Shown: piece after piece, positions 15,884 to 49,692 of the stretch | How the letters are laid out: every line of letters begins with the position of its first letter | Position numbering within the stretch: position 1 is the stretch's first letter | Assembly (NCBI RefSeq): GCF_000743355.1 | Contig: NZ_JQEI01000046.1 | Span: forward strand, 1 to 49,692 | Reading direction: 5' to 3' | Length of the DNA stretch: 49,692 nt | Origin: Serratia sp. Ag1 | GTDB taxonomy: Bacteria; Pseudomonadota; Gammaproteobacteria; Enterobacterales; Enterobacteriaceae | Program-made: the position numbers and the translations under genes | Notes under the pieces: model-generated | What the model was told of the DNA's origin: nothing | Database searches by the model: none | What the model saw: only the letters and a program-made list of their open reading frames with translations

Positions 15884-15955
15884 TATCCGTCATACTCCAA
15901 GTTGTTTGGGTGTTGGTTGAACCCTGCCACCAGCAACTCGAATTATTTCGGGTAT
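15884..15955. repeat. Palindromic repeat, internally shortened and diverged (element C)
   Basis: 72 bases in opposite orientation to B: CCGTCATACTCCAAGTTG at the left and CAACTCGAATTATTTCGGG at the right, with several mismatches to the arms of B and D and only a short interior. It lies just upstream of chaC. Confidence 0.65.
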
Positions 15956-16004
15956 GCTTCTTTGAAATTTAGTTTTGCGGAAGTTTATTAATTAATACCG
16001 CTGT

Positions 16005-16124
16005 TATACCCAAAATAATTCGAGTTGCTTGTAGGCGGCAACTGAGCTAAGCCCCAGGAGCGAGGCCCAGTATGGGCCGAGTAACGCAGCCAACACCCAA
16101 GCAACTTGAAGTATGACGGGTATA
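16005..16124. repeat. Palindromic repeat, full length (element D)
   Basis: 120 bases with the same ends as element B, TATACCCAAAATAATTCG and AAGTATGACGGGTATA. The interior differs: GAGCGAGGCCCAGTATGGGC, then CGAGTAACGC. It sits about 50 bases from element C and 330 bases upstream of the siderophore-interacting gene. Confidence 0.85.
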
Positions 16125-16225
16125 TAAACATAACCTTATTCGCTTCTTACAGTGTAATCAAGTTTCAACCTCGATTTAATGTGAAAACGTATTGAAATGT
16201 AACTGCCATAATAGTTAAGCCGACT

Positions 16226-16304
16226 CTACCCTAAATAATTCGAGTTATTTGTAAGAAACAAACGCGTGCAGTCAATACCCAACCCTCCTCAAATATGAAG
16301 GGTA
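16226..16304. repeat. Degenerate palindromic repeat (element E)
   Basis: The left arm CTACCCTAAATAATTCGAG and right end CTCAAATATGAAGGGTA match the repeat family with many substitutions. Apparently an old, decayed copy. Confidence 0.5.
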
Positions 16305-16394
16305 AACTTTAATCTCAGATATCTTTTTAATAATATGGATTGTACAAAAAACACTCTTTACTTTCATGCAGCCTCTCCCGAAACAAAAATCAAA

Positions 16395-16426
16395 ACAATT
16401 CTCATTATCATATGTCGTGATATACT
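16395..16426 (+). promoter_or_regulatory. Fur-box-overlapped promoter of the siderophore-interacting gene
   Basis: ACAATTCTCATTATCATAT (16395-16413) resembles the Fur consensus GATAATGATAATCATTATC and overlaps a candidate -35 (TTCTCA, 16399-16404). The -10 TATACT is at 16421-16426 with 16-base spacing. This predicts repression by Fe-Fur in iron-replete cells. Confidence 0.6.
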
Positions 16427-16453
16427 CAGCGCAGAATGATAAAGGAGAACCCA

Positions 16454-17272
16454 ATGACTGCTGGCACCCCACGCCCTCGTGCACCTTATTTGATTGAAGT
16501 CACCCGTCTGTGCGACATCACGCCACACCTGCGCCGTATCACCTTTAGCGCTCCTGACTTATGCCACTACCCTGCGAACGCTGCCGCCGCCCATATCAAA
16601 GTATTTTTGCCATGCGCAGGCCAGACGCAACCCGATTTACCAACGCTGAGCGACAACGGTCCGGTCTGGCCCGCCGACGCTGTGCGCCCGATTGTCCGTA
16701 CCTATTCGATACGTGCCGTTCGGCCTGAGCAAGCAGAGATCGATATCGAGTTCGCCCTGCACGATCACAACGGCCCTGCAGTGAATTTTGCTCGTCAGGC
16801 TAAGCCAGGTGACAAAATCGGTATCAGCAACCCCGGTGGCCCCAAACCCATGTTGCCAGCAGCAGACTTTTATTGCCTGGCTGGTGATCCCTCGTCACTG
16901 CCCGCGATCGCCGCGTTGTTGGAAAACCTGCCCGCCAACAGCACCGGACGGGTATTTATTCGGGTTGATACACCTGCAGACGTGCTTGATCTGAAGAAAC
17001 CAGCCAACGTTGAGCTGAGCTGGATCATTGGCTCTACTGATAAAACGGCTGAACTTATTACTCAATTCTGTGCACAACCGTTGCCACAGGCTGGCATCCA
17101 TTTCTGGCTAGCGGGTGAAGATCGTCTGGTGGTCGAACTGCGCCGTTATTTACGCCGTGAATGGAAATGCGACCGTAATCAGCTTTATGCCGTGCCTTAC
17201 TGGCGTGAGGGGCTAAATGAGGAAGGCTACCATGAGAAAAGGCATGAAATTATGGATAATATTGACTCGTAA
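16454..17272 (+). CDS. Siderophore-interacting protein (FAD-dependent ferric-siderophore reductase family)
   Basis: I choose the ATG at 16454 (272 residues) because AAGGAG lies 6 bases upstream; the frame opens six codons earlier. The protein has the SIP fold of ViuB/YqjH-like enzymes: an FAD-binding domain with RTYSIRAVRPEQAEIDIEF near 80-100 and GISNPGG near 120, then an NAD(P)H-binding domain ending FWLAGEDRLVVELRRYL and YAVPYWREGLNEEGYHEK. These cytoplasmic enzymes release iron by reducing ferric siderophores. The Fur-type site just upstream supports an iron role. Cognate siderophore unknown. Confidence 0.9.
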   Translation: MTAGTPRPRAPYLIEVTRLCDITPHLRRITFSAPDLCHYPANAAAAHIKVFLPCAGQTQPDLPTLSDNGPVWPADAVRPIVRTYSIRAVRPEQAEIDIEFALHDHNGPAVNFARQAKPGDKIGISNPGGPKPMLPAADFYCLAGDPSSLPAIAALLENLPANSTGRVFIRVDTPADVLDLKKPANVELSWIIGSTDKTAELITQFCAQPLPQAGIHFWLAGEDRLVVELRRYLRREWKCDRNQLYAVPYWREGLNEEGYHEKRHEIMDNIDS

Positions 17273-17370
17273 CGGCCAATTTCTGCCTGATTCGCTCAAG
17301 CTAATGCATAGCTGACTTGATTTTATGCCCGCATAGCATAGGAAAAACACCCTATTGCGTAAAAATGCGT

Positions 17371-17401
17371 AAAAAAAACCGCATGCGTTGCGGTTTTTTT
17401 G
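17371..17401 (+). terminator. Rho-independent terminator
   Basis: AAAAACCGCA / TGCGGTTTTT stem with loop TGCGT, followed by T residues, about 100 bases after the siderophore-interacting gene. A-rich left and T-rich right flanks make it usable in both directions. Confidence 0.85.
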
Positions 17402-17490
17402 TTACGCTTGTCACATAAAGTAACCCATTGCTTTCCCAAGTTAAAACAACATCACATCATTACCCAGTGTCATGAGCAGGGTGTATCCTA

Positions 17491-17604
17491 TTAATATGTC
17501 CCCTTCGTCTTCTGGATGATGGGGCCGGTTGCCTTATATATGCCGCGAATCTGACCGTTCGAGGAAACGACCACCGGCCTACAATCTGAAAACTCTCTGG
17601 GGTA
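17491..17604 (-). pseudogene. Possible 3' fragment of an unknown gene, cut by element F
   Basis: On the minus strand a coding-like frame runs out of element F and ends in a stop at 17493-17491. It includes CRPVVVSSNGQIRGIYKATG followed by PIIQKTKGTY. The sequence inside the repeat does not continue as a plausible protein and no start lies between the repeat and this segment. I read it tentatively as the C-terminal end of a gene disrupted by the element. Family not recognised. Confidence 0.3.
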
Positions 17605-17762
17605 TATACCCAAAATAATTCGAGTTGCTTGTAGGCAGCAACTGAACGACAAATGGGTCATAGACCCATTTGAACAACGCTGGCGCTGGCCCGCAGAGTG
17701 AGGCCCTGTATGGGCCGAGTAACGCAGCCAACACCCAAGCAACTTGAAGTATGAAGGGTATA
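17605..17762. repeat. Palindromic repeat, longest copy (element F)
   Basis: 158 bases with the family ends TATACCCAAAATAATTCG and GAAGTATGAAGGGTATA. It has an extra internal hairpin, AAATGGGTC / GACCCATTT, not present in B or D. It ends 78 bases upstream of chaA and may influence chaA expression. Confidence 0.85.
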
Positions 17763-17840
17763 ACAACATTCTGGATATGCAGACTAGCCAACGATTCTGC
17801 AATGACCGGGCCATGCAGTTTGAGAAGGAGAATCACCAAA

Positions 17841-23517: not shown

Positions 23518-24306
23518 TCAATCATATGCATTAAGCGTGTGCTGGCACAGTGCCGAGCGGACACAGTCTTGTTTATCAAAGCGGATGATGCCTACCATCT
23601 CGTCCTCTTCGAAGCGCTCCAACGCGTCGCTGAGGCCGGATTTCACGCCGCGCGGTAAATCGCACTGGGTGATATCACCATTCACGATCACCGTAACGTT
23701 TTCACCCAAGCGGGTCAGAAACATCTTCATCTGGCTGGCGGTCACGTTTTGGGCTTCGTCCAGAATCACCACCGCATTTTCAAAAGTACGCCCGCGCATA
23801 TAAGCGAAAGGCGCGATCTCCACCTTGCCGATTTCCGGGCGCAGGCAGTATTGCATAAACGAAGATCCTAAACGGCGCAGCAAAACGTCATACACTGGCC
23901 GGAAATAAGGGGCGAATTTCTCAGAGATATCCCCAGGCAAAAAGCCGAGATCTTCATCGGCCTGCAGAACCGGACGCGTCACAATAATCCGATCCACCTC
24001 TTTATGTATTAAAGCTTCTGCCGCTTTGGCCGCGCTGATAAACGTTTTACCGCAACCCGCTTCGCCAGTGGCAAATATTAACTGCTTATTCTCTATGGCT
24101 GATAAGTAATGACCTTGAGCTTCAGTTCTCGCTTCAATGGTAGAAGTATCTCGGCTGTCACGAGCCATGCCGATCGACTCAACCCCCCCCATTTGCACCA
24201 GCGAGGTCACGCTTTCTTCTTCACGTTGGCGATGGCTACGTGCGTCACGGCGAATAACGCGTTTAGCTTCACGACGTGCTTTGATCACTGCTTTCTGTCT
24301 TCCCAT
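23518..24306 (-). CDS. phoH: PhoH-family ATPase
   Basis: 262 residues, almost collinear with E. coli PhoH as I recall it. It begins MGRQKAVIKARREAKRVIRR and has Walker A FATGEAGCGKTFIS near 78-91, TRPVLQADEDLGFLPGD, and Walker B AVVILDEAQNVTASQMKMF near 188-206. PhoH is a cytoplasmic P-loop NTPase related to superfamily I helicases and in E. coli belongs to the phosphate-starvation regulon. I could not place a convincing Pho box upstream. Confidence 0.93.
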   Translation of the reverse strand: MGRQKAVIKARREAKRVIRRDARSHRQREEESVTSLVQMGGVESIGMARDSRDTSTIEARTEAQGHYLSAIENKQLIFATGEAGCGKTFISAAKAAEALIHKEVDRIIVTRPVLQADEDLGFLPGDISEKFAPYFRPVYDVLLRRLGSSFMQYCLRPEIGKVEIAPFAYMRGRTFENAVVILDEAQNVTASQMKMFLTRLGENVTVIVNGDITQCDLPRGVKSGLSDALERFEEDEMVGIIRFDKQDCVRSALCQHTLNAYD

Positions 24307-34168: not shown

Positions 34169-35569
34169 TTATTTGGTGGGAGCCGTCAACAAAGCGTAAC
34201 GGTTCAACAACTGGGTCAACCTGCTTTCGATCTGAGTTTGCAACCCTGGTGAAACCTTGCCATTACGCTGTTGTTCTTCAAGTTGACGCAACAACTCCTC
34301 TAAAGGCGGCGTGCGGTTCATCGGCTGTTGTACAGCAAAAACTACCGATTTCAGTTCTGAAACCGTTATATAACGGCCACGCTGTTCATCCAGCGAATTC
34401 AGCTTATCCGCAAGCTGCTGCAGGCGAGTTTGCGCCTGATGCCAATCCTCCATCGCGGCTTTTGGCAACGCTTGTGCTTCACGCTGCTGATGCCATTGCT
34501 CCCCCAACTGTTTTACCTGCGGGCTTGCTGGCCAGAGGGCATGCAGCTGTTGCACCAATACGCTGCCGTAGTTCAGTGCCCATAAAGGAGAGAGTGTGTC
34601 CAAGCGCAGCAGTTGTTCACCACTGGCTTGAGCCATGGCATCTTCAAGCCTGGCCAGCTCGGCACGGTGATCCGCTTGCTGGAGTTTGGCCAACTGCCCT
34701 GGCTCCAGCAACACAGGCAATGGCCTGACCATATTTTGCAATACCTGCTCGGTGCCTGACAGCCGCAGAGAAGTAATTCCCCACCAAGAACCTGCTCCGA
34801 CCAGCAAACTGATGAGTACCCCTGCCAAAAAACCGTGCCACATCTTCCAGCGAGCGGGTTCTGGAACCGGTGCCGGTTCAGGCTCGGGTTCAGGTACTGG
34901 CGGCGGCGGCGGCGGCGGTGGTACCGGTACTGATTCCTTGATGATATAAACCAGCGGTGGTGACGCAGCACTTTCCTGCTGGAACGCACCCTCGGGCTCA
35001 ATCCGAATTTCAGTGGCCTGTGGCGCAGCTGTGGCGGCAGACTCCAGGCTTTCCAGCCGCAATGCGGCGTGATGCATCTGGCTGCGCAAATTATCTAACT
35101 TGCTGAGATGTTTCAGATCCAGGCGCTGCAACACATAGCACACATGTTCCAGCACTTTTTCAATACGGTAAATCTGCGCCAGATCGCCATACTGGAATTC
35201 CTGCGTACGCAACACCTGCTGCAAGCGAGCGACCAGCCAGGCAAGAATTTCTACCCTGGCATGCGTTTGCTGCGGCCAAAAAACCGGCCACTGATGCGTG
35301 AGCAAACCATCAATCAGTTGCATCCCTTCAAGGATGCCAGACAGCCCTGAACGTTGTGTGCGCGCCAACGTAAACCACGCGACCGTTTGCAGCTCGACGC
35401 CATTTTGCCGGAACAATGTCATACAGAGCTGTTCAACCTTGCCCCAATGTACATCCGGACGCGCTGGGTGGCTCAGCTTGGCGATTTCCTCTTTCAGCGT
35501 TGCGAATTCCGCCAAAGTACGTGGGTCACCACCGGTTTTTATGCTGTTTCCTGATGATAATGCGCTCAT
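34169..35569 (-). CDS. T6SS VasL/TagA-like membrane protein with ImpA N-terminal domain
   Basis: 466 residues in three parts: an ImpA_N domain (HPARPDVHWGKVEQLCMTLF, GLLTHQWPVFWPQQT), a Pro/Glu linker (about 215-240; PVPPPPPPPPVPEPEPEPAP), one membrane helix (WHGFLAGVLISLLVGAGSWW) and a C-terminal helical VasL-like domain. Such TssA paralogues in other T6SS cap or stop the growing sheath at the distal membrane; that role is inferred. Last gene of the locus; separated from tssA by 160 bases containing a coding-like scrap. Confidence 0.82.
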   Translation of the reverse strand: MSALSSGNSIKTGGDPRTLAEFATLKEEIAKLSHPARPDVHWGKVEQLCMTLFRQNGVELQTVAWFTLARTQRSGLSGILEGMQLIDGLLTHQWPVFWPQQTHARVEILAWLVARLQQVLRTQEFQYGDLAQIYRIEKVLEHVCYVLQRLDLKHLSKLDNLRSQMHHAALRLESLESAATAAPQATEIRIEPEGAFQQESAASPPLVYIIKESVPVPPPPPPPPVPEPEPEPAPVPEPARWKMWHGFLAGVLISLLVGAGSWWGITSLRLSGTEQVLQNMVRPLPVLLEPGQLAKLQQADHRAELARLEDAMAQASGEQLLRLDTLSPLWALNYGSVLVQQLHALWPASPQVKQLGEQWHQQREAQALPKAAMEDWHQAQTRLQQLADKLNSLDEQRGRYITVSELKSVVFAVQQPMNRTPPLEELLRQLEEQQRNGKVSPGLQTQIESRLTQLLNRYALLTAPTK

Positions 35570-35578
35570 TCAGTTACC

Positions 35579-35729
35579 TTATTCCCTACACTGTAGTTTT
35601 TTTAGATGTCGAACCAATACCCGCCTCTCTGGCAAAAACTCCCTGTCATAACGTACCAACCCTAATCCCTTTAATCCGGTATCACTGCCTACCGTTGTTT
35701 CTGCCGAACTGACCTTACTGCATATTTCA
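35579..35729 (-). pseudogene. Possible remnant of a gene between tssA and vasL-like
   Basis: A 48-codon frame with no start reads CSKVSSAETTVGSDTGLKGL, then GLVRYDREFLPERRVLVRHL and KKLQCRE, ending in TAA at 35581-35579. Composition is protein-like, and this spot is where many T6SS loci carry further genes. It could be the 3' end of a deleted T6SS gene. Family not recognised. Confidence 0.3.
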
Positions 35730-37325
35730 CTAGCCGCAGAGTACGGCAGCACGTGCCGGATCGATGGCAACCAGCCCACTGAGTAACTGTTCCATCTGGC
35801 GTGCCAGTTCGGCTTTATCTGCATCGCCACGCTGAGCTTTCATCCGCAACAGCTTCAAGCGCCGGGCCTTCACTTCAAACATCAAGGCAGGTTCCCACTG
35901 GCTGAGCGTAAACAGCTCCACCGGGCCATCCAGCTCACTCAGCAAATGCAGCGCCATCTCATTTTTGCCATACTGCTCGGCAACGCGCGCCATCAGCAGC
36001 CGCAGCAGCCAGCGTTGACGATGCGTGTGGATCCCCGGGCGAGCAGCCAGCCAACCTAAGGCAGCCTCAATGCCGTCGCTGTCTGCCTGGGCAAGCGCCT
36101 CCGGCTCCAACGCCAGAATGTCGCTATCCTCACCCGCAACCGTTGCGGCGTTTTCTGGCAGCCAGCTCGAAGCGCTGCTCCCTTGCACCTGTTGCTCAAT
36201 CCAGGCTACCGTGACCTCATCGGCAAAAGGTGTGCCATCGGCATAGGCCAGCTTTTCCAGACCCGGTAAACGCTCCAGCAACATCGCCAGATCGTGTTTG
36301 ATAATATCTGCCCACAGATCGTAAGGGTGGCCGTGTTTGCTCAGCCCTTGATAGGTATACCACTGCAGATCAAGCCAGAAGTGGTTTACGCCTTCGCCAA
36401 ACATGCTTTCCGTGCGCTCCAGCAATTCGCCCCAACTTTGCTGCAGGTAGAGGCGTTTTAACTGAGCACGGTATTCGGTGCGCGGTGCGACCAGCCGAGT
36501 CAGACCCGCGCTGTCTTGAGGGGGGAGTTGATGCACGGTGTCCCAGCGGACACTCTTCATCAGCCTTGAGGCCGAAAGCCACCCTTGCGGTTGTTCACGC
36601 AGGTAGCGGGCCAGCTCTTTTGCCTGATCCAGGAGATCGCGCCCGGATTGCACCTGCCGCAAGCTGGGGAGATCCTGTTGGCGAACCTGCGCTGGCGCAT
36701 TTTCTGGCGCCCCGCTATTTTGCGGCACCAGGGCATCCATACCACCTGATTGAGCCAACCGGTTATCCAACGCGTTATACAACCCAGCGAAGGAAGGCCG
36801 ATCCTGTTCTGGCCAGCTGCTAAAGGCATGATCGAGCAGCGCCAGCGCCGCCACCGCACGTTCGAAGTCGGCTTTTTCGATCTCAGGGTAACGCATCAGG
36901 CTATCCTGCACCTTGCCACCGGCCAGCCATTCCAGCGCCACTTTTCGGCTATTGGCGCGCAGTGGCAACAGTGCCTCGCCATATTGTTCAACCAGCCCGG
37001 CCAGCAGCGTTAACCCATCCGCCAGCCCAGCTTCACCGTCGCGGTGCAAACGTGCCCACAGGTAATAAGTGACCACCCGCACATCTTTGCAACTGGTGGT
37101 CAGCAGCTTTTCCGCCAATTGGCAAATCAGATCGGTATCTGCGCCTGAGAGCTTGTTCATCTCTTCACGTATGCGCTGAAAATCGTCGTCATAACCTGGA
37201 TCGTCACCAACCGGCGCATTTGCTGCAATAGGCTCCAGCCAGCGTTGCCACAGTGCTGCAGCCCGCCGAGCTTCGTCTAACGCGTCACGATCTTTAAAAC
37301 ACGCGGCGATAAGTTGTGCCAGCAT
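35730..37325 (-). CDS. tssA: T6SS baseplate/sheath-assembly protein TssA
   Basis: About 531 residues. Of two adjacent ATGs the second (37325) is better spaced from GGAGG. The N-terminal ImpA_N part includes VGDDPGYDDDFQRIREEMNK and VVTYYLWARLHRDGEAGLAD; the long C-terminal part (WGELLERTESMFGEGVNHFW, LGWLAARPGIHTHRQRWLLR) fits class TssA2/VCA0119-like proteins. TssA binds the baseplate and primes Hcp tube and sheath polymerisation. Confidence 0.88.
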   Translation of the reverse strand: MLAQLIAACFKDRDALDEARRAAALWQRWLEPIAANAPVGDDPGYDDDFQRIREEMNKLSGADTDLICQLAEKLLTTSCKDVRVVTYYLWARLHRDGEAGLADGLTLLAGLVEQYGEALLPLRANSRKVALEWLAGGKVQDSLMRYPEIEKADFERAVAALALLDHAFSSWPEQDRPSFAGLYNALDNRLAQSGGMDALVPQNSGAPENAPAQVRQQDLPSLRQVQSGRDLLDQAKELARYLREQPQGWLSASRLMKSVRWDTVHQLPPQDSAGLTRLVAPRTEYRAQLKRLYLQQSWGELLERTESMFGEGVNHFWLDLQWYTYQGLSKHGHPYDLWADIIKHDLAMLLERLPGLEKLAYADGTPFADEVTVAWIEQQVQGSSASSWLPENAATVAGEDSDILALEPEALAQADSDGIEAALGWLAARPGIHTHRQRWLLRLLMARVAEQYGKNEMALHLLSELDGPVELFTLSQWEPALMFEVKARRLKLLRMKAQRGDADKAELARQMEQLLSGLVAIDPARAAVLCG

Positions 37326-37469
37326 CATTCCACCTCCGCCATCAGTTCAGCATTTAGCGGAACTGCCGGTGTTCTCTCATTGGCATCAAGTATCTTGGTC
37401 GACAAAGTAAAACCTCGTAATTTCTTCTATAGCGCCAATAACGTCAAAAAGGGCCACTTCTGTCGATCA

Positions 37470-40136
37470 TTACGCCGTCATCGCCCGGTCCGGGTCGTCG
37501 AACGCCAACGTAATCCCCTCTTCATCGTTGTACCCCAACAACAGATGTTGCGGTTTCTGATGCTGGGCCAACTGTTGTAACAGTTGCTGGCTCAATACCG
37601 GCAGAATTTGCTGATTCAGCAAGCTGTCAATGTTACGCGCACCGCTGTCTGGCAGCAGGCAGGCCGCTACCAGCGTATCGTACAGGCTCTCTTCGATAGT
37701 GCAGTTCAACCCATAATGGCGCTGCAGACGCTGAGCGACCTGTTCGAGTTTCATTTCGACGATATTGCGCAATGCCGGAGCGGCCAGCGGGCGATAAATC
37801 ACCGTCTGGAAACGGGCCAGTAACGCAGGTTGGAAATGCTCGCGCAGGATCGGGCGCAACAGTTCTTGCAGGGAGGCATCCGGTGCTTCAGGCTGTTCAT
37901 CCAGCAGTTGCATGATGTGATCGCTGCCCATATTGGCAGTCATCAAGATTACGGTGTTGCGGAAATCAATCTCACGGCCTTCGCCATCGCGCATAAAGCC
38001 ACGGTCAAACACCTGATAGAACATGTTCAGCACATCGCGATGGGCCTTCTCTACTTCATCCAGCAGCACCACGCTGTATGGGCGTTTGCGTACCGCTTCG
38101 GTGAGCACGCCACCCTGGCCGTAACCCACATAACCCGGCGGTGAGCCTTTCAGTTGGGAAACGGTGTGAGCTTCCTGGTATTCCGACATATTGATGGTGA
38201 TGAGTGCCTTTTCACCGCCGAACAGGCTATCCGCCAACGCCAATGCTGTCTCGGTTTTACCGACCCCGCTTGGGCCAACCAGCAGGAACACACCCAGCGG
38301 GCCATTTTCTGGCGTCAGCCCGGTTTTAGAGGCCCGGAGACGTTGTGCCAGCGCCAATAGAGCGGCATCCTGACCAACAACGCGCTGACCGAGATTCTGC
38401 TCCAGTTGCAGCAGATTGGTTTGTTCGTCTTTCAGCAGGCTGCCCAATGGCACCCCTGTCCAATCAGCAATCACCGTCGCCACGGTACGGGCATCAACAT
38501 CCAGTGACAGTAAGCGAATGTTATTTTGCAGCTCATTTAACTGCTGCTGCAGTTGCGCGCGCTCAACGGAGCGGCTGAGATCTTTGCGCAATTCCAGTAG
38601 CTGCTGAGTTAAGGTTTTTTCCTGCTTATACTGCTTCTCCAGCTCGATCTGTTGTTTTTGCAGCACATCACGCCAGTCGGTAATATCCGCCAAACGTGCC
38701 GGATCGGCATCTGAACTCAGCACCAGATCCTGTTCAATCGCCTGCTGTTCCATGTCCAGTGCGAGCAGTTCAGAACTGACCTGCATCAACGGCTGGGGTT
38801 TAGTATCGAGGCTCATGCGTACCCGGGCGCTGGCAGTATCCAGCAGGTCAACCGCTTTATCCGGCAACTGACGGCCTGTCAGATAGCGGCGCGACAAAGT
38901 CACCGCCGCTTTTACGGCTTCATCGGTGATATGTACACCATGGTGTTTGGCATAGCGATCTTTCAGGCCACGCAGCATCAGGCAGGCTTTTTCGTCATCC
39001 GGCTCATCCACTTTCACCATCTGGAAGCGGCGTTCCAAGGCGGCATCACGCTCAAAATATTGTTTGTACTCCGACCAGGTGGTCGCTGCGATCGTGCGTA
39101 GTTCACCACGGGCCAGTGCAGGCTTGAGCAGGTTGGCAGCATCCGCGCCCCCAGCCTGATTACCTGCACCAATGATGGTATGAGCTTCGTCGATAAACAG
39201 CAGGATCGGGTTCGGCGACTGCTGTACTGCTGCAATGACGTTTTTCAGACGCTGCTCAAACTCCCCTTTGACACCGGCCCCCGCCTGCAACAACCCCAGA
39301 TCCAACGTGCGCACGCTGACCGTTTTCAGGCTGTCTGGCACGTTACCTTCGGCAATGCGCAAGGCCAGCCCTTCAACCAGAGCCGTTTTACCCACCCCAG
39401 GTTCACCCACCAGAATCGGGTTATTTTTACGCCGACGGGAGAGGATATCCACCATCTGGCGGATTTCGTTGTCACGCCCGAATACCGGATCAATCTCATT
39501 GGCCTTGGCTTTAGCCGTAACATCCTGCGTAAACTTGTCCAGCACCGCCAGCAATGCCTCATTCGGCACTGGCGATGGAACCGACGGATCCGTTGCAGAC
39601 TCAGATTCTTGTTGAGGCAAGGTAGAAGGATAGCGCCCCAGTTCCGCCTGCTGCTGTAACTCCGGGCGCTCATCGGATTGCGCATCCAATAATGGGCGCA
39701 AGCGCTGTAATTGAGTTGGGCTCAAACTCAATAGCGGCCACAGGCCATCGCTCGCGAGCTGCGATGGCTTTGCCATCAGCGCACCCAGCAGATGAACGCT
39801 GCGGATTTGTTGCGCATCTTCATCCAGTGATGCCGTCAACCAAGACTGCTTAATCAGGTTCAGCAAGGCAACTGAGAGATGTGGGCGGCTACGAACCGAA
39901 CGTGGCAATGTGTCCAGATTCGCCAACAGCGATTGCCAGACGCCATCCATATCCCACTCATAGCGCCGGGCCAAGACGGTGATATCCCCTTCCCCCAACT
40001 CCAACAATTTGAGCAACCAGTGTTCAATGGTAATTTCTGCGTGGGCCCGGGTCTGGCACAATGTTGCGGCGGCCTCCAAGGCCTGCGCACAGTAAGAATT
40101 TAACCGGCGTAATAATATAGCTGACTGATTTTCCAT
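37470..40136 (-). CDS. clpV: T6SS sheath-recycling AAA+ ATPase ClpV (TssH)
   Basis: Start at 40136 (MENQSAILLRRLNSYC, 888 residues) has AAAGGAAC just upstream; the frame opens 16 codons earlier. N-terminal Clp repeat domain, then two AAA+ modules: VGEPGVGKTALVEGLALRIA with LLFIDEAHTIIGAG, and GPSGVGKTETALALADSLF with VVLLDEVEKAHRDVLNMF. The coiled middle domain (EQDLVLSSDADPARLADITD) is present. ClpV disassembles the contracted TssBC sheath. The gene is intact, unlike tssK. Confidence 0.96.
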   Translation of the reverse strand: MENQSAILLRRLNSYCAQALEAAATLCQTRAHAEITIEHWLLKLLELGEGDITVLARRYEWDMDGVWQSLLANLDTLPRSVRSRPHLSVALLNLIKQSWLTASLDEDAQQIRSVHLLGALMAKPSQLASDGLWPLLSLSPTQLQRLRPLLDAQSDERPELQQQAELGRYPSTLPQQESESATDPSVPSPVPNEALLAVLDKFTQDVTAKAKANEIDPVFGRDNEIRQMVDILSRRRKNNPILVGEPGVGKTALVEGLALRIAEGNVPDSLKTVSVRTLDLGLLQAGAGVKGEFEQRLKNVIAAVQQSPNPILLFIDEAHTIIGAGNQAGGADAANLLKPALARGELRTIAATTWSEYKQYFERDAALERRFQMVKVDEPDDEKACLMLRGLKDRYAKHHGVHITDEAVKAAVTLSRRYLTGRQLPDKAVDLLDTASARVRMSLDTKPQPLMQVSSELLALDMEQQAIEQDLVLSSDADPARLADITDWRDVLQKQQIELEKQYKQEKTLTQQLLELRKDLSRSVERAQLQQQLNELQNNIRLLSLDVDARTVATVIADWTGVPLGSLLKDEQTNLLQLEQNLGQRVVGQDAALLALAQRLRASKTGLTPENGPLGVFLLVGPSGVGKTETALALADSLFGGEKALITINMSEYQEAHTVSQLKGSPPGYVGYGQGGVLTEAVRKRPYSVVLLDEVEKAHRDVLNMFYQVFDRGFMRDGEGREIDFRNTVILMTANMGSDHIMQLLDEQPEAPDASLQELLRPILREHFQPALLARFQTVIYRPLAAPALRNIVEMKLEQVAQRLQRHYGLNCTIEESLYDTLVAACLLPDSGARNIDSLLNQQILPVLSQQLLQQLAQHQKPQHLLLGYNDEEGITLAFDDPDRAMTA

Positions 40137-40260
40137 AGTTCCTTTCCCTGTTCTCTCGTCACGCCCAGGCACGCTATGGCCCATATCCGTTAACCGAGAC
40201 CCATAAGATTATCTGATAAAAGTACGTTGTCTTTGCCTAATGCCTGCAGCAGACCCTAGG

Positions 40261-40304: not shown

Positions 40305-40796
40305 TTACGCGGTAGCGCGTTCATTCCAGGCATCAGAATGAATGATGTTGCCATCTTTGTAAGTCCAGGTGATTTTTTCGTAACGCAGTTCTACCAGTTC
40401 CAGGTGATTGTGTTTCTCTTTGCCTGGATCTTTGATGTCGTGCATCTTCGGTGCCACTTTAACGACTTTCACGTTGTCCAGCTTGGTGTTGAAATACTCA
40501 ACTTCCTGGCCAGCGTCATCAATGCGGTACCATTTGAACTCAGCCGTTTTCAGCGTTTGGCCGGTGGTCACCGCTTTGTACAGATAAGGGCTGGACGCAT
40601 CGATTTCCTTAGTAAACACGAAAGGCGTGTGGATACGAGTGCCGGTCAGCTTGCCAGTGTTATTGTCAGTCGGGATGTACAGGCTATGATCCTGTGCCAC
40701 CACTTCGATGCTCCCTTCGCGACTTTGCACGTCCACAGAACCTTTAATGTCCGCACCGCCGTCGTCCTTCAGCCACAGATAGACTGGAATTGCCAT
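40305..40796 (-). CDS. hcp: T6SS tube protein Hcp (TssD)
   Basis: 163 residues, the standard size. MAIPVYLWLKDDGGADIKGS, REGSIEVVAQDHSLYIPTD, THTPFVFTKEID-like segment (RIHTPFVFTKEIDASSP), and ITWTYKDGNIIHSDAWNERA are classic Hcp. Hcp hexamers form the inner tube and carry effectors. GGAGAG precedes the ATG by 5 bases. It lies between the OmpA-domain gene and clpV and has its own strong terminator. Confidence 0.97.
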   Translation of the reverse strand: MAIPVYLWLKDDGGADIKGSVDVQSREGSIEVVAQDHSLYIPTDNNTGKLTGTRIHTPFVFTKEIDASSPYLYKAVTTGQTLKTAEFKWYRIDDAGQEVEYFNTKLDNVKVVKVAPKMHDIKDPGKEKHNHLELVELRYEKITWTYKDGNIIHSDAWNERATA

Positions 40797-40798: not shown

Positions 40799-42556
40799 TT
40801 ACTCTCCTTGATTATCAGAACCGCCAACTTGTTCCGGCGGAGTTACACTGCCCGGCCCCTGGCAGGCATTTGCCTGAGGAACCAGACTAATTTCTACTCT
40901 TCGATTTGCTGCCCGCCCTTGGTCAGTGTCGTTAGAAGCAATGGGCCGAGTGGCACCATACCCCTGAACGGCAAAACAGGTCGGTGAAACATCACTGGTC
41001 TGCAACATCCAATCGCGTACCGACTCCGCACGCTTGAGAGACAACATTTGATTCGCCTTGGCATCCCCGGTGATATCGGTATGCCCCGCCACCACAATCA
41101 ACCAGCCTGGCTTGGCTTTAATGTTGATTAACGCCTCCACCAGTACTTTGGTGGAGCCCGCTTTAAGCTGATACTTGCCGGTATCAAAGAGCGACAGGCT
41201 ATCAAGCAGCACGGTTTGAGGAGCAACCTGCGGTGGCGCTGGCTCATCAACTTTTATTTCTTCAACCGGCGGTATATACCCCTTAATCGCGGCCAAAACC
41301 GGTTGCCGCAAGCGCTCACCAGGATACAAACCCAGGCCAAGATTAAGAGGAACCCCCTCACGGTAATATTCATTCAGTTGCGCGGCATCGGCTTTCAATA
41401 CCTTCACGGCCTGTGCTTTGGCTTGGGTATCCGACATGGGAATGGCCTGGTAGCGTTGCAGATCATCCGTCATCTGGCGCGACAGCGTACGGTTCTGCCA
41501 CGCAGAAACATTCAGTGCAACCAACCCGGCAAGCGTGAATACCCCGGCGGCATAAACTGCCGCACGGCGGCGTGGGGTAAAACCGGACTGCTGCGGTAAA
41601 AGACGCAACAGCGGATCGGGGAAAGGCAATGAGACGTCCTCACTTACCTTGCTGCTGCTTTCTTTACGGTTGAGTGTGGTTTTCTCCGTCAGCCACTGCT
41701 GCCAGAGATGAGCAGATGACAACTCAGGCACCGCCGGAGAAAACGTCAGCGCCAACGCCAACGGTGAACAAACCGGGATCGACTGTTCACGCGTTAAACA
41801 TTGCGGCAGGATTTGTTGCACCATCCACTGCACCCAGCTTTCAACTTCTATTGCCCGGTAAAGTCTCTGGGTTTGTTCTGCGCTCTCGCCTTGTGCCACC
41901 CAATGCGCCAAAGGTTGTGCCGAGTGCGCATTATGCCAGACCGTCGCGGAAGGCTGGCCCGCTTTGAATTCAAACCATTCAGGATTGTCAGTTGCCACAT
42001 CAGATGTCATTGCCATCGGTAGATAGCTGCATAGCAATGCAGGAACATCAGTGCCTGTTACGCGGCGCATGCGGGATAGCTGGTGGCGAAAGGTTTGGAC
42101 ACGGTTTGCCAATACCGCCATATCGTTGTGCTGTGATGGGTTAACCAATAGCAACGTGCTGAGTTGTGTTACCCAATCTGGGCGCAGGTTAAGCAATGCG
42201 GCAGAGGCTTCGGACAGCATCGAAAGGTCAGAAACTACCAAATAGCAACCCTCCGGTGTTTCACGCACCGCTGCGCCCTTAAACATCTGTGCTAAACCAT
42301 CACCACAAACCAGCACTACCGGCTGCCGATAACGTTCAGCAGGTAGATGGGCCTGCCAGGCGGCATTGATAGCGGATTCAACCTGTGCAGCAACGCGTGA
42401 ACGCCCACCCCGTATCCATACAGCCAGGGTAACAACAATAATAATTACAGCACCGATAAATTGGCCACGTGGAGTAAGAGGGAAGTAGCCCACACATAAG
42501 ATCAAGGCCAGAACACCAGCCCAGAGCCATAACAACCGCTTTAACATTGCACTCAC
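40799..42556 (-). CDS. T6SS-associated OmpA-domain membrane protein
   Basis: 585 residues from GTG 42556, which overlaps the tssL stop (GTGA); ATG 42547 is an alternative. Two N-terminal helices (LWLWAGVLALILCVGYF, GAVIIIVVTLAVWI) and another near residue 335 (AGVFTLAGLVALNVSAW) anchor it. The C-terminal OmpA peptidoglycan-binding domain contains VVAGHTDITGDAKANQMLSL and GYGATRPIASNDTDQGRAAN, then RRVEI. Probably attaches the TssL/TssM membrane complex to the wall, in place of an OmpA domain fused to TssL. Confidence 0.85.
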   Translation of the reverse strand: MSAMLKRLLWLWAGVLALILCVGYFPLTPRGQFIGAVIIIVVTLAVWIRGGRSRVAAQVESAINAAWQAHLPAERYRQPVVLVCGDGLAQMFKGAAVRETPEGCYLVVSDLSMLSEASAALLNLRPDWVTQLSTLLLVNPSQHNDMAVLANRVQTFRHQLSRMRRVTGTDVPALLCSYLPMAMTSDVATDNPEWFEFKAGQPSATVWHNAHSAQPLAHWVAQGESAEQTQRLYRAIEVESWVQWMVQQILPQCLTREQSIPVCSPLALALTFSPAVPELSSAHLWQQWLTEKTTLNRKESSSKVSEDVSLPFPDPLLRLLPQQSGFTPRRRAAVYAAGVFTLAGLVALNVSAWQNRTLSRQMTDDLQRYQAIPMSDTQAKAQAVKVLKADAAQLNEYYREGVPLNLGLGLYPGERLRQPVLAAIKGYIPPVEEIKVDEPAPPQVAPQTVLLDSLSLFDTGKYQLKAGSTKVLVEALINIKAKPGWLIVVAGHTDITGDAKANQMLSLKRAESVRDWMLQTSDVSPTCFAVQGYGATRPIASNDTDQGRAANRRVEISLVPQANACQGPGSVTPPEQVGGSDNQGE

Positions 42557-43221
42557 TCAGCGCCCCCTGGTAATAAGGCCGCGAGTAATTCCTGTAACTG
42601 CATATGCAACACCCACCAACTGCCTGCCAACACTAACAATGCGATGAAAAACCAGAAAAAAACCGACTGGAATAAACGGGATGAGTGCCGTGGCCGGGCC
42701 GCTAACGCCAAAGGCGGCTGCAAGGCAATATCGTAGGCAGCCACCTGCTCACCCAAAGTCGCCATAAGTTGTTCACGCGGTTGTTGCTGCAACTGGCCGT
42801 GATAAACACCTTCAAACCCGAGCCGTAATACCCGATAAAAACAGGTCAATACGGCGGGATCAGCCGCAGGCTCACGCAGCACTTGACGCATGCGCTCATA
42901 CAACAGTTCCCCTGCCTGCAGCGTATTGAAAAAATGCGTCTGTAACGGTGTCTGGATCCAGGTGTTGTAACCTTCATCCTGCCTACCACGCCCCAGAACG
43001 GTTTCATCCAGCAATGCACATTGTGCATACGCGATATGCTCAATACTTTCGGCGCTGTAACCCGACTCGGTTAACCGAGTCTGAGTATCGACAACCAGTT
43101 GCAAGCAACGCTGATACAATGCCGTACCTTGCTGAGCGGGCACACCACGGCGTAACTCAGCCACAATCAACCAAGTGTCGTAGAGCAGGCTGTCAATAGA
43201 GAGATCGCTGATTGGTTTCAT
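42553..43221 (-). CDS. tssL: T6SS membrane-complex protein TssL (DotU/IcmH family)
   Basis: 222 residues, the short TssL form: cytoplasmic helical DotU domain (AYAQCALLDETVLGRGRQDE, YNTWIQTPLQTHFFNT, RVLRLGFEGVYHGQ) and one C-terminal membrane helix (VFFWFFIALLVLAGSWWVL). It would normally contact TssM and TssK. Its ATG overlaps the stop of the truncated tssK (ATGA) and its stop overlaps the next start, so tssK-tssL-ompA are translationally coupled. Confidence 0.93.
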   Translation of the reverse strand: MKPISDLSIDSLLYDTWLIVAELRRGVPAQQGTALYQRCLQLVVDTQTRLTESGYSAESIEHIAYAQCALLDETVLGRGRQDEGYNTWIQTPLQTHFFNTLQAGELLYERMRQVLREPAADPAVLTCFYRVLRLGFEGVYHGQLQQQPREQLMATLGEQVAAYDIALQPPLALAARPRHSSRLFQSVFFWFFIALLVLAGSWWVLHMQLQELLAALLPGGAE

Positions 43222-43598
43222 GAACGCAACACCGCAAAGAGTTCAAGCTGTACATCCGATAATGCCAGCAAGACCTCAACACTACGCTGAGGCCCATCCA
43301 GAATCTGTGCCAAATTGATTGCGGGTGGCAGGTTATCCGTCACATCAGTGTCAATCAGACTCCCGTCTGGGAGACGTAACCGGAGGTGCTGTGCTTTCAG
43401 CCGATTAAGGTGCAACGCATCTTGATCAAACTCTGCACACAGCACTCCCCATGGATGATTCAGCGACAGGTGCGCAAGACAGTCATTAGCATAACTTTCC
43501 CAACGCGCCTGTTGCTGAAATTGTTGAGGGGACAGAAACGCCCCCTCCGTCCACAACGGACGTAAGATTTTCATAACCTGCTGCTCCCGCATGCCCAA
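43218..43598 (-). CDS. tssK: TssK, severely shortened (large internal in-frame deletion)
   Basis: Only 126 residues, whereas TssK is normally about 440. The N-terminal shell domain is clear: MKILRPLWTEGAFLSPQQFQ, NHPWGVLCAEFDQDALHLNR and LPDGSLIDTDVTDNLPPAIN. The frame then goes from VEVLLALS straight to DVQLELFAVLRS and a stop. That ending looks like a natural TssK C terminus, so the middle (neck and most of the C-terminal head that binds TssL/TssM) appears deleted in frame. Start could be the ATG of MKILRPLW, eight codons downstream. The ATGA coupling to tssL is kept. Without another tssK the baseplate should not assemble. Confidence 0.85.
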   Translation of the reverse strand: MGMREQQVMKILRPLWTEGAFLSPQQFQQQARWESYANDCLAHLSLNHPWGVLCAEFDQDALHLNRLKAQHLRLRLPDGSLIDTDVTDNLPPAINLAQILDGPQRSVEVLLALSDVQLELFAVLRS

Positions 43599-45140
43599 TT
43601 AGGCTTTCGCTTTTGGCATCTGGGAAACCAGTGACAGATTGACATCCATGCCTTCAACCTGGAAGTGCGGTACTGCGTACAGTTTCACGCGGAAGAAACC
43701 TGGATTATCTTCAATGTCTTCCACTTCAACTTTAGCATCACGCAGTGGGTGAGACGCTTGCAGATCGTCACCTGGATCGGTCATTTCAGTCACCAACCCG
43801 CGCACCCAGTTGTTCAGTTCCAACTCCAGCAGACGGCGATCTTTTGTCGTGCCGATGTTTTCGCGTTGAATCAGTTTCAGGTAGTGAGCAATGCGCGACA
43901 GCAGGAAGATGTATGGCAGACGTGAGTTGATACGGCTGTTAGCGGTAGCATCTGCGGTGTCATACAACGCAGGTTTCTGCGCAGAGTTCGCCGAGAAGAA
44001 GCAGGCGTAATCACGGTTTTTGTAGTACGACAATGGAATAAAGCCCAGATTGGCGAATTCAAATTCGCGCGTTTCCGGGATCATCACTTCCGACGGGATC
44101 TTCACCTGATTGCCAGTGCCCAGATCGTACAGATGGATTGGCAGATCGGTAACCGCCCCACCAGCCTGTGGGCCACGAATCTGCACACACCAACCGTTTT
44201 TGATAAAGCTCTTCACCATGTTGGCTGCAAAAGCGAATGAAGCGTTGGTCCACAGATACTTTTCATGATCTGGACCTTTCACTTCTTCTACATAGTTAAA
44301 GCTGCGTACCGGCACAGTATCTGGGCCATATGGCAAACGGCCCAGCACGCGTGGCATCGTCAGACCGATGTAACGGGCGTCGTCGGTATCGCGGAAAGAT
44401 TTCCACTTGATGTATTCAGCGCGATCGAAGTAGTTACCGATATCTTTAATGGCAGCGACTTCTTCCATGCTTGATTTGCCAAAGAAAGCCGGGCCAACTG
44501 AACCGATAAACGGCATATGCGCAGAAGCAGAAACTTTGGAAATGTTACGCAACAGGGCAATGTCCTGTGGGCCTGCATCGAACTCATAGTTAGAGATCAC
44601 GGCACCAATCGGCTCACCACCTGGGGTGTCATATTCCTGAATGTAAGCGTGGCGATACATTCCGCTCTGAATGATTTCTGGTGAATCTTCGAAATCCTGG
44701 CGCAGATCTTCCTTCGAAATATCCAGCACTTCAATTTTCACGTTCTGACGGAAATCCGTACCGTCGACCAGTTGCTTAAGACCACGCCAGGCGGATTCCA
44801 CTTTCTGGAATTCCGGGTGGTGCATAACCACGTCCAACTGACGGCTGATCATTTGATCCAGTTCAGCAATGTGGTGATCCAACAAGGTCTTATCCAGACG
44901 CTCAACTTTCTGGCCAGACTGCTTCAAACGCTCCAGGAAAACCTGAACCGCTGCAGTGACACGCTCATCAGCCGTGGTCTCAGACAGAGCAGTATTGTCC
45001 TGATAGGCATCCAGATCGCCCAGCGCGGATACCGGCGTCAGATTAATTTTTTCAAACAAGGAAGCATAAACACTGCCTTCTTGTGGACGTTCCAGAACAG
45101 TGGTCTGGCTTTCCTTGGTATTTTCGGTATTTACAGACAT
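43599..45140 (-). CDS. tssC: T6SS contractile sheath large subunit TssC
   Basis: 513 residues from ATG 45140 (MSVNTENTKESQ; GAGAG spacing favours it over the ATG two codons earlier). QLDVVMHHPEFQKVESAWRG, FGKSSMEEVAAIKDIGNYFD, LGRLPYGPDTVPVRSFNYVE and YKNRDYACFFSANSAQKPAL are diagnostic of TssC/VipB. It forms the sheath with TssB, which lies immediately upstream. Intact length. Confidence 0.97.
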   Translation of the reverse strand: MSVNTENTKESQTTVLERPQEGSVYASLFEKINLTPVSALGDLDAYQDNTALSETTADERVTAAVQVFLERLKQSGQKVERLDKTLLDHHIAELDQMISRQLDVVMHHPEFQKVESAWRGLKQLVDGTDFRQNVKIEVLDISKEDLRQDFEDSPEIIQSGMYRHAYIQEYDTPGGEPIGAVISNYEFDAGPQDIALLRNISKVSASAHMPFIGSVGPAFFGKSSMEEVAAIKDIGNYFDRAEYIKWKSFRDTDDARYIGLTMPRVLGRLPYGPDTVPVRSFNYVEEVKGPDHEKYLWTNASFAFAANMVKSFIKNGWCVQIRGPQAGGAVTDLPIHLYDLGTGNQVKIPSEVMIPETREFEFANLGFIPLSYYKNRDYACFFSANSAQKPALYDTADATANSRINSRLPYIFLLSRIAHYLKLIQRENIGTTKDRRLLELELNNWVRGLVTEMTDPGDDLQASHPLRDAKVEVEDIEDNPGFFRVKLYAVPHFQVEGMDVNLSLVSQMPKAKA

Positions 45141-45174
45141 CAGCATACTCTCGTGTTAATCCAGCTCTCAGGGG

Positions 45175-45675
45175 TTACGCTTCTTTAGGAGCCAGCGCGG
45201 CCAGTTCAGTGCGCAAATCAGCGCTTAACGATTCGTCTTTAAGAATGGCTTCCAGCTCTTTACGGAAGGTGACGTTATCCAGGAGGTTGGATTTGAGGTC
45301 GCGCAGCAGATTGCGCATGGAAAGGAGAGCACGCAGTTGGGGGATGCTACGCGCTACCTGCTCTGGCTCGAAATCTTTCATTTCTTTGAACGTCAGCGCG
45401 ATGTTCTCTTCACTCTTATCACCAGCTAACGTGTTTTCTACAACCAGTTTGACTGAAGGGCTGAATTCCGCTAACACATTATCGAAATTATTCTTGTTGA
45501 CGGAGATCTTTTCGCGCTCAGACAGCGCTCTGTGCTCCTGTCCGTTGCTATAATCACCCATCACCATTAGCTTGAGAGGCAATTCTACTTTTTTCTGCGC
45601 CCCGCCGGTATGGAGGTCGAGTTTGATGTTAACGCGCGCGCGCGGTATCTCATTTTGGTAGCTGGAGGAGGCCAT
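45175..45675 (-). CDS. tssB: T6SS contractile sheath small subunit TssB
   Basis: 166 residues, usual length. ARVNIKLDLHTGGAQKKVEL, PLKLMVMGDYSNG and FDNVLAEFSPSVKLVVENTL identify TssB/VipA. The C terminus contains the helix that interlocks with TssC. AAGGA precedes the ATG by 5 bases. First gene of the operon, preceded by a long AT-rich leader region. Confidence 0.96.
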   Translation of the reverse strand: MASSSYQNEIPRARVNIKLDLHTGGAQKKVELPLKLMVMGDYSNGQEHRALSEREKISVNKNNFDNVLAEFSPSVKLVVENTLAGDKSEENIALTFKEMKDFEPEQVARSIPQLRALLSMRNLLRDLKSNLLDNVTFRKELEAILKDESLSADLRTELAALAPKEA

Positions 45676-47998: not shown

Positions 47999-49692
47999 TT
48001 AGTGAGCTTCAGCGGTACTGCTTGCAGGCATAACATCCAGGATACGCACGCTATAGACCATAGTGGCACCCGGTGGAATGTCTGGCGCCATCCCTTTGTC
48101 GCCATAGGCCAACTCAGGTGGAACTACCAGCGTCATGCTGCCATGGTTTTTCAACTTGGTAATTGCTTCACGGAACAATGGTGGATAAGCACTCAGCGGT
48201 TGTGAAATCGATGTACCCGCCAGATCCATATCTTTAATCACCTTACCATCGGTCAGACTTTCTTTAACCACGACGGCAACCGTATCCGTCTCATTAATAG
48301 CACCATCACCCTTATAATCTATACGGTAGTAGAAGCCTTGCGGTGATTTAACCACCTTGGCCTGCTGCCTGAATTTATCAATATATTTCTTGCCCGTTTG
48401 TTCATTCTTTGTTTTTAACTGCTTATGCTGACTATTTAATTCCAGCTCGCTCTCATACAAGGCTTTAGCAATTTGCTCTTTGTCCATTTTAATCTGGCCG
48501 TTGATGGTGTCGGTCACCCCCGCTAACGCCACTTGCCGATTAACTTCAACACCCTGCGACTTTTTACTCTCAAGCAGGCTTACAATGTCGTTACCCAGAG
48601 AAGTCCCGATAGCATAATCACGCTTTTCCTGATCGGTTTTAGGCTCTGTCAAGACAGCCACACTTTCCGGTTGCGATTTCTTAGCATCAGCCAACGCTTG
48701 TTGTAACTGCTTGAGATCCTGATCTTTCTGCTCGCGATCTTTAGCCTGCTCTGCCAGTTGCTCTTGCAGTTTGGCATTCGATTGCTGGCTTTCCTGTACG
48801 GTTTGCTGCAATTGTGCCAACTGTTGCACTTTCTGCTCGCTGTCTTTGGCTTGTGCCGCCAGTTGCTCCTGCAACTTGGCGTTCGCCTGCTGGCTTTCTT
48901 CTAGCGTTTGCTGTTGCTGTTTAACCTGTTGGGTTTTCTGCTCACCATCTTTGGCCTGAGCTGTAAACTGCTCCTGCAATTTGGTCAGAGCCTGCTGGTT
49001 CTCCTGCAACGATTGCTGTAGTTGTTTCACCTGCTGAGTTTTCTGCTCGCTATCTTTGGTTTGCGATGCCAGTTGCTCTTGCAGTTTGGCCAAGGCCTGT
49101 TGGCCCTGTTGCAGTTCTTTCACCTGCTGAGTTTTTTGCTCGTTGTCTTTGGTCTGCGATGCCAACTGCTCCTGCAATTTGGCACTCGCCTGCTGGTTAT
49201 CCTGCAACGTTTGCTGTAGTTGTTTCACCTGCTGAGTTTTCTGCTCGCTATCTTTGGTTTGCGATGCCAGTTGCTCTTGCAGTTTGGCCAAGGCCTGTTG
49301 GCCCTGTTGCAGTTCTTTCACCTGCTGAGTTTTTTGCTCGTTGTCTTTGGTCTGCGCCGCCAATTGTTCCTGCAATTTGGCACTCGCCTGCTGGTTATCC
49401 TGCAACGTTTGCTGTAACTGCTTCAGCTGCAGCGCTTTTTGCTCGCTATCTTTGGTTTGCGATGCCAGTTGCTCTTGCAGTTTAGCCAAGGCCTGTTGGC
49501 CCTGTTGCAGTTCTTTCACCTGCTGAGCCTTTTGTTCGCTGTCTTTGGTCTGCGCCCCCAATTGTTCCTGCAGCTTGGCACTCGCCTGCTGGTTATCCTG
49601 CAACGTTTGCTGTAACTGCTTCAGCTGCTGCGCTTTTTGCTCGCTATCTTTGGTTTGCGCCGTGAGCTGTTCTTGCAACTTAGTCAGGGACT
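47999..49692 (-). CDS. FKBP-type peptidyl-prolyl isomerase with long repetitive coiled coil (5' end outside window)
   Basis: Incomplete: the frame is open to the window edge, where S-L-T-K precedes LQEQ, so the true start, and any signal peptide or membrane anchor, lies outside. The first about 340 visible residues are a Gln/Lys/Glu-rich repeat array starting LQEQL with TKDSEQK. Then comes an FkpA/Mip-type N-terminal dimerisation domain (YAIGTSLGNDIVSLLESKKS, GVTDTINGQIKMDKEQIAKA) and an FKBP catalytic domain (FREAITKLKNHGSMTLVVPP, ELAYGDKGMAPDIPPGATMV). In FkpA/Mip the protein works in the periplasm as a foldase. The predicted shape is a rod with the isomerase at its tip. Confidence 0.85.
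   Translation of the reverse strand, partial: SLTKLQEQLTAQTKDSEQKAQQLKQLQQTLQDNQQASAKLQEQLGAQTKDSEQKAQQVKELQQGQQALAKLQEQLASQTKDSEQKALQLKQLQQTLQDNQQASAKLQEQLAAQTKDNEQKTQQVKELQQGQQALAKLQEQLASQTKDSEQKTQQVKQLQQTLQDNQQASAKLQEQLASQTKDNEQKTQQVKELQQGQQALAKLQEQLASQTKDSEQKTQQVKQLQQSLQENQQALTKLQEQFTAQAKDGEQKTQQVKQQQQTLEESQQANAKLQEQLAAQAKDSEQKVQQLAQLQQTVQESQQSNAKLQEQLAEQAKDREQKDQDLKQLQQALADAKKSQPESVAVLTEPKTDQEKRDYAIGTSLGNDIVSLLESKKSQGVEVNRQVALAGVTDTINGQIKMDKEQIAKALYESELELNSQHKQLKTKNEQTGKKYIDKFRQQAKVVKSPQGFYYRIDYKGDGAINETDTVAVVVKESLTDGKVIKDMDLAGTSISQPLSAYPPLFREAITKLKNHGSMTLVVPPELAYGDKGMAPDIPPGATMVYSVRILDVMPASSTAEAH
48671..49678 (-). repeat. Tandem coding repeats, alternating 105 and 93 bp (198-bp higher-order period)
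   Basis: Units in coding order: 49678-49574 (35 aa), 49573-49481 (31), 49480-49376 (35), 49375-49283 (31), 49282-49178 (35), 49177-49085 (31), 49084-48980 (35), 48979-48875 (35), 48874-48770 (35), and a diverged last unit to about 48671. The 35-residue form ends LQDNQQASAK or similar, the 31-residue form KELQQGQQALAK. Paired units form a near-identical 198-bp repeat. Confidence 0.92.

What the first reader, a model, noticed from the sequence alone, without database searches (positions are those of the whole stretch)
43218..43598. tssK reduced to 126 codons by an apparently precise in-frame internal deletion
The TssK N-terminal shell domain is intact, then the frame jumps to what looks like the last dozen residues of TssK, keeping the stop and the ATGA coupling to tssL. 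A random decay event would more often frameshift. TssK is an essential baseplate component, so either this T6SS is dead, another tssK complements, or a mini-TssK has a new role such as capping or regulation.
Basis: partly seen in the sequence, partly recalled or inferred. Interest (0 to 1): 0.75.

Follow-up and report, generated by a model that had tools for sequence, protein, structure and literature searches.

The report
Broken baseplate gene in shrunken T6SS
A gene for a key part of a bacterial injection machine has lost about three quarters of its length from the middle, in a gene cluster that had already lost other parts, so this is most likely ordinary gene decay rather than a new mini-protein.

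Summary
The deletion is real. On the minus strand, 43574..43218 encodes 118 aa (126 counts a non-conserved start): TssK residues 1-106, then the last 12, keeping the stop and the ATGA overlap with tssL. Against the collinear intact tssK of Serratia oryzae exactly 993 bp (331 codons) is missing. The piece is nowhere else in the assembly except as a 67%-identical paralogue. No second case of such a form was found.

A genus-mate has a fuller cluster between the same neighbours; S. oryzae and this strain lack vgrG, tssM, tssF, tssG and tssJ there. This strain also lost about three quarters of tssE, and its assembly shows TssF and TssM only in three other clusters. The N-terminal domain is not intact: about half the shoulder strands are gone. 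The remaining genes show no sign of relaxed selection, so the lesions are recent or the module still lends parts. Best reading: stepwise decay; sharing of parts with a paralogous cluster is the live rival.

The parts
43218..43574 (-). truncated tssK, 118 aa: TssK residues 1-106 (105-106 at the junction) fused to the last 12 residues
43257..43262 (-). deletion junction (codons TTA TCG); 993 bp present in S. oryzae is missing here; Leu-Pro codon pairs CTGCCG and TTGCCA stand at the two ends in S. oryzae
42553..43221 (-). tssL (DotU, 222 aa), overlaps the tssK stop by ATGA
43599..45146 (-). tssC (sheath large subunit), intact, 99.8% identical to S. oryzae
45175..45675 (-). tssB (sheath small subunit), intact, 97% to S. 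oryzae
40799..42556 (-). OmpA-domain protein of the cluster, intact
40305..40796 (-). hcp (tube), intact, 100% to S. oryzae
37470..40184 (-). clpV, intact
35730..37328 (-). tssA (ImpA_N + VasJ domains), intact
35579..35683 (-). tssE remnant: matches residues 112-145 of 145 of S. oryzae TssE, plus stop; start and 5' three-quarters missing
34169..35569 (-). vasL (ImpA_N + VasL domains), intact

Best explanation
The 118-aa ORF is a truncated tssK made by one 993-bp internal deletion, perhaps between short similar sequences (a Leu-Pro codon pair stands at both ends in S. oryzae). It lies in a type VI secretion cluster that is being reduced step by step. The absence of vgrG, tssM, tssF, tssG and tssJ is shared with S. 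oryzae and so probably older. The losses of most of tssK and most of tssE are seen only in this genome. The product keeps the N-terminal TssG-contacting segment, but it loses half of the shoulder sandwich, the whole helical neck and all but one strand of the head. It should therefore not be able to join a baseplate to a membrane complex. Shown: the deletion, the absent genes, the selection measures. Inferred: the loss of function, the slippage mechanism, the order of events, and that the locus cannot fire by itself. The frame is kept either by chance (one in three) or because the coupled downstream genes still matter.
For: Collinear S. oryzae locus with intact tssK and exactly 993 bp more. The missing piece is not elsewhere in the assembly except as the C64 paralogue. 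Fuller orthologous cluster between the same neighbours in G002, with all nine families searched. vgrG, tssM, tssF, tssG and tssJ absent from the reduced locus in both species. tssE reduced to a 34-residue tail here but 145 aa in S. oryzae. In this genome TssF 3 and TssM 3, all inside three other clusters; TssG 3 there plus a fragment on C12. Model of the mini-protein poor (mean pLDDT 65.6, pTM 0.41): residues 41-100 at 60-80 per block of ten, against 88-93 in full-length S. oryzae TssK.
Against: No sign of relaxed selection. dN/dS between this genome and S. oryzae runs from 0 (hcp) and 0.001 (tssC) to 0.097 (OmpA-domain gene), and is 0.081 for the tssK remnant. Changes private to this lineage number 52, against 63 in S. 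oryzae, over nine cluster genes. Eight cluster genes are intact. A dead locus should decay, so either the lesions are recent or the rest is still used. An assembly gap could hide TssF/G/M of the paralogous cluster. In the models the first 40 residues score about alike in the short and full forms.
Confidence: 0.6

Rival explanations
1. Hybrid machine: this module still lends tail parts (TssB, TssC, Hcp, ClpV, TssA) to a paralogous T6SS of the same clade, which lends TssK, TssE and the rest. Own tssK and tssE were lost because the paralogues suffice.
For: The reduced module is strongly constrained between this genome and S. oryzae although both lack tssF/G/J/M/vgrG there, so it probably already worked in trans. 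In this genome contigs C64, C40 and C8 carry paralogues with a 450-aa tssK, clpV, a vgrG frame that runs to the contig end and a 154-aa tssE frame, while their tssB lacks its 5' third: complementary losses. S. oryzae has a same-clade cluster on C33 with all nine families searched.
Against: No TssF or TssM of this clade is in the assembly, and TssG only as a fragment of uncertain origin. TssJ on C8 is cut by the contig start. TssK of C64 is only 56% identical to this one over the N-terminus.
Confidence: 0.25
2. Assembly artefact: the full-length gene is present and the assembler collapsed it.
For: Draft of 109 contigs; no reads were available.
Against: No leftover contig holds the missing stretch; its only match is the C64 paralogue at 67%. 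The junction is clean and in frame. A second deletion (tssE) lies in the same cluster.
Confidence: 0.08
3. A working mini-TssK: a decoy or regulator that binds TssG feet by its N-terminal segment and damps baseplate assembly of a related system.
For: The residues that line the TssG-binding pocket of EAEC TssK (N-terminal 15-18; PMC6300606 and PMC8406304, passages seen) are kept. The remnant shows no faster change (1 private change against 0).
Against: The helical neck is gone, and the pocket is described as formed by a TssK trimer (same passages). The shoulder is half lost. No intact TssG outside the three other clusters was found in this genome. No other genome examined showed such a form.
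Confidence: 0.05

Closest known systems
TssK (T6SS_VasE, PF05936), EAEC structures 5m30, 5mwn, 6giy, 6n38
   Same: Residues 1-105 of the window protein align with EAEC TssK residues 1-103 and the last 12 residues match its C-terminus, the latter a weak second stretch.
   Different: 118 aa instead of about 445-450; half of the shoulder, all of the neck and nearly all of the head are missing.
Reduced T6SS locus of Serratia oryzae J11-6 (G004/L033)
   Same: Same neighbours, same gene order, same absent genes.
   Different: There tssK (449 aa) and tssE (145 aa) are intact.
Incomplete T6SS clusters after duplication (Boyer 2009, PMC2660368, passages seen)
   Same: Gene loss in one of two related clusters in genomes with several T6SSs.
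   Different: The passages seen do not describe an in-frame internal tssK deletion.
Broken tssK copies in other genomes: L095 (Photorhabdus thracensis), G287, G118, G144
   Same: Short or disrupted TssK frames beginning with the N-terminus.
   Different: L095 and G287 look like frameshifts; in G118 and G144 the match stops after residues 132 and 169 and no TssK C-terminus follows in the stretch read. None is an in-frame internal deletion.

Membership tests
TssK (PF05936) | N-terminal sequence of the family | tested here: met
   E=1.5e-17, profile 1-88 of 429
TssK (PF05936) | Complete shoulder beta-sandwich | tested here: not met
   Full-length S. oryzae model has shoulder strands on to residue 175-183; strands at 128-136, 143-151, 154-157 and 165-175 fall in the deletion
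TssK (PF05936) | Helical neck | tested here: not met
   Helices 198-279 of the full-length model fall inside the deletion
TssK (PF05936) | Head domain that binds TssL/TssM | tested here: not met
   Only the last strand (440-447) is kept
TssK (PF05936) | Binds TssG and enters the baseplate | not testable with these tools
   needs biochemistry
Complete T6SS cluster | tssB, tssC, hcp, clpV, tssA, tssL present and intact | tested here: met
Complete T6SS cluster | tssE, tssF, tssG, tssJ, tssM and vgrG present in the locus | tested here: not met
   tssE only a tail; for the others no match on this contig
Natural family of short TssK proteins | Recurrence of the same short form in other genomes | tested here: not met
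   77 of 80 GTDB loci hold at least 430 aa; the 3 short ones are one apparent frameshift and two contig-end cases.
Pseudogene by deletion | Relaxed selection on what remains | tested here: not met
   dN/dS 0.081, 1 private change against 0; a recent lesion would look the same

The most novel reading that the evidence does not exclude
Two paralogous T6SS clusters in one genome are wearing down in complementary ways: the window cluster keeps the sheath pair, tube, ClpV and TssA but loses its baseplate genes one after another, while the other (contigs C64, C40, C8) keeps TssK and TssE but has lost the front of tssB. Together they would be read as one machine spread over two loci, with the tssK deletion a harmless step. 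This needs tssF, tssG and tssM of the clade to lie in assembly gaps.
Probability: 0.1. Interest if true: 0.55.

Novelty: new member of a known kind. Interest (0 to 1): 0.22.

Why it matters
It gives a series of one T6SS cluster in three related genomes: a fuller one, a reduced one, and one further reduced in TssK and TssE, with the remaining tail genes under strong purifying selection between the last two. That makes a real question testable: can a cluster without baseplate genes stay useful by lending sheath and tube to a sister system? The mini-TssK itself is probably of no consequence.

Tried and rejected
A mini-TssK family: looked for in the 7 genomes held for the genus, own included, 295 of the family, and the best 80 of 174 confirmed loci in the GTDB collection (lengths); none found. 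The three other short frames were fetched and read: G287 is split over two frames, G118 and G144 lose the match after residues 132 and 169.

A stray copy of the lost piece: only the C64 paralogue at 67%; the other 32 hits have E of 0.197 or more. A tssM tail between clpV and tssA: part of that gap aligns between this genome and S. oryzae, and by eye it looked like a tssM end, but blastx gave no TssM match, so it is not claimed. The TssG fragment on C12 was first thought to be the scar of the S. oryzae C33 cluster; it is 38% identical to the C73 TssG, but my C33 and G002 comparison translations were out of frame, so its origin is open. Fold search of the mini model: the 13 chains at E<=0.001 are all TssK, with TM by query 0.35-0.47 and rmsd 10-14 A, so the model is too poor to argue from. 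A plasmid search found annotated tssK beside tssC in relatives at 72-77% identity, no copy of this locus.

Literature: the searches (10 of 22 listed) listed, by title and abstract start, no paper on an in-frame internal tssK deletion or on this locus. Seen: listings, and passages of PMC6300606, PMC8406304, PMC6730261 and PMC2660368.

Full report
What is there. Its first eight codons do not hold a start in the relative; the shared ATG is at 43574, giving 118 aa. Pfam scores it as TssK over profile positions 1-88 of 429 (E=1.5e-17), and phmmer aligns it with EAEC TssK residues 1-103. Residues 105-106 are the junction codons TTA TCG; then comes DVQLELFAVLRS, the TssK C-terminus, and the stop overlaps the start of tssL (ATGA).

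The deletion. A search of the genus (7 genomes held, own included) found a 457-aa open frame, 89% identical over the N-terminus, in genome G004. The two loci are collinear from vasL to past amn. From the shared ATG, the S. oryzae gene has 449 codons against 118, a difference of 331 codons or 993 bp, and the two ends in S. oryzae carry the Leu-Pro codon pairs CTGCCG and TTGCCA exactly 993 bp apart. That fits slippage between short similar sequences, but the direct ancestor is unknown, so this step is inferred. Frame retention is a one-in-three event. The missing stretch used as a DNA query finds in this genome only the C64 paralogue (67%), besides 32 hits with E of 0.197 or more, so no leftover contig speaks for a collapsed assembly. 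Reads were not available.

The cluster. In the window it reads tssB, tssC, truncated tssK, tssL, OmpA-domain gene, hcp, clpV, tssA, tssE remnant, vasL. In genome G002 the orthologous place between amn and vasL holds a fuller cluster with vgrG, tssM, tssF, tssG, tssJ and tssE as well. S. oryzae has the same reduced set as the window but with full tssK and a 145-aa tssE. Of 80 GTDB loci read with the same reference proteins, S. oryzae is the only one in which the window's TssA was detected in the stretch held; 61 of 80 (counted by eye) show vgrG, and several of the rest are short or cut. So the older reduction is shared by S. oryzae and this strain, most simply through their ancestor, and tssK and tssE were damaged later, in this lineage. 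The tssE remnant matches residues 112-145 of 145 (71% identical, E=1.6e-11) and has lost its start.

What else the genome holds. TssK: 5 places, 4 of them full length. TssC 5, TssL 5, TssF 3, TssM 3, TssG 3 plus a fragment on C12, TssJ 3 plus a piece cut by the start of contig C8, VgrG domains 10, none on the window's contig, gp25-like 8, of which 3 stand with the three other clusters, 1 is on C8 and 4 (C21, C33, C67, C69) were not looked at. The three TssF, TssM, TssG and TssJ sets lie in three other clusters (two on C3, one on C23), each with all nine families searched. The C23 TssC is 41% identical to the window's; the C3 stretches fetched did not include TssC. A second same-clade remnant is spread over contigs C64 and C40, which share 21 bases at their ends, and probably C8: tssB without its 5' third behind unrelated DNA, then tssC, a 450-aa tssK, tssL, OmpA-domain gene, hcp, clpV and a vgrG frame running to the contig end, and on C8 the end of tssJ and a 154-aa tssE frame. 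It is 86-95% identical by piece to its S. oryzae counterpart. No TssF or TssM of this clade was found. The genome is scored 100% complete, but the breaks at C40 and C8 leave room for a gap.

Selection. Nei-Gojobori dN/dS between this genome and S. oryzae: tssB 0.019, tssC 0.001, tssK remnant 0.081, tssL 0.092, OmpA-domain gene 0.097, hcp 0, clpV 0.033, tssA 0.038, vasL 0.052, flanking amn 0.025, with dS from 0.29 (hcp) to 1.27 (amn). Several dS against the outgroup are saturated. With G002 as outgroup, protein changes private to this lineage number 52 against 63 in S. oryzae over nine cluster genes; for the tssK remnant 1 against 0. The module was thus constrained for most of the time since the split. 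This is the main result against a plain 'dead locus': either the two lesions are recent, or the tail genes are still used in trans.

Structure. AlphaFold2 with 38 window and locus rows gives the 118-aa protein mean pLDDT 65.6, pTM 0.41. Full-length S. oryzae TssK with 36 rows gives mean 82.4, pTM 0.64. Residues 41-100 score 88-93 per block of ten in the full form against 60-80 in the short form; the first 40 residues score about alike. In the full model the shoulder strands run on to about residue 175-183, the neck helices span 198-279 and the head follows. The short form ends in the middle of the shoulder. The two alignments differ in length and depth, so this is a rough control. Foldseek's 13 hits at E<=0.001 are all TssK chains but with rmsd 10-14 A. 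[quoted passage not shown] The first is kept here, but without the neck; the second is lost.

Other genomes. Of 80 GTDB loci 77 hold a TssK of at least 430 aa; the three short ones are an apparent frameshift (L095) and two contig-end cases. The 191 is split over two frames; in the 350 and 144 the match to TssK stops after residues 169 and 132. None repeats the in-frame internal deletion.

Verdict. A genuine in-frame truncation of tssK, seen only once here, in a T6SS cluster under stepwise reduction; ordinary decay is most likely (0.6). Sharing of parts with a paralogous cluster is the serious rival (0.25). A new role for the 118-aa protein has no positive support beyond a kept N-terminus and no faster change (0.05).

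Noticed in passing
window 35579-35683: 3' remnant of tssE between tssA and vasL; S. oryzae has a 145-aa tssE there.
   Followed up: yes
L028 (G000:C64) 1-420 and L119 (G000:C40): Second same-clade T6SS remnant; tssB lacks its 5' third and is preceded by DNA 77-80% like hypothetical genes on two enterobacterial plasmids.
   Followed up: partly
L118 8611-9111 (G000:C12:66727-67134): TssG C-terminal fragment beside a frame that looks like an IS1595-type transposase (name recalled); 38% identical to TssG of S. oryzae C73.
   Followed up: partly
window 13797-17769: Family of palindrome-like intergenic repeats (TATACCCAAAATAATTCGAGTTGC ... GGGTATA), with copies also near the T6SS clusters on C3 and C40; resembles known enterobacterial repeats (recalled).
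   Followed up: no
window 48725-49660: FKBP-type isomerase gene with long tandem coiled-coil-like repeats (198-bp unit, 94% match), near the contig end; 1069- and 1259-aa frames in relatives.
   Followed up: no
window 23523-23716: Match to Rfam Yersinia sRNA 251 (RF02855), 187 bits.
   Followed up: no
L095 (Photorhabdus thracensis) from 1659; L134 (G287): tssK copies that look broken by frameshifts.
   Followed up: partly
L133 (G118), L135 (G144): TssK frames whose match to TssK stops after residues 132 and 169, with other sequence following; not identified.
   Followed up: partly
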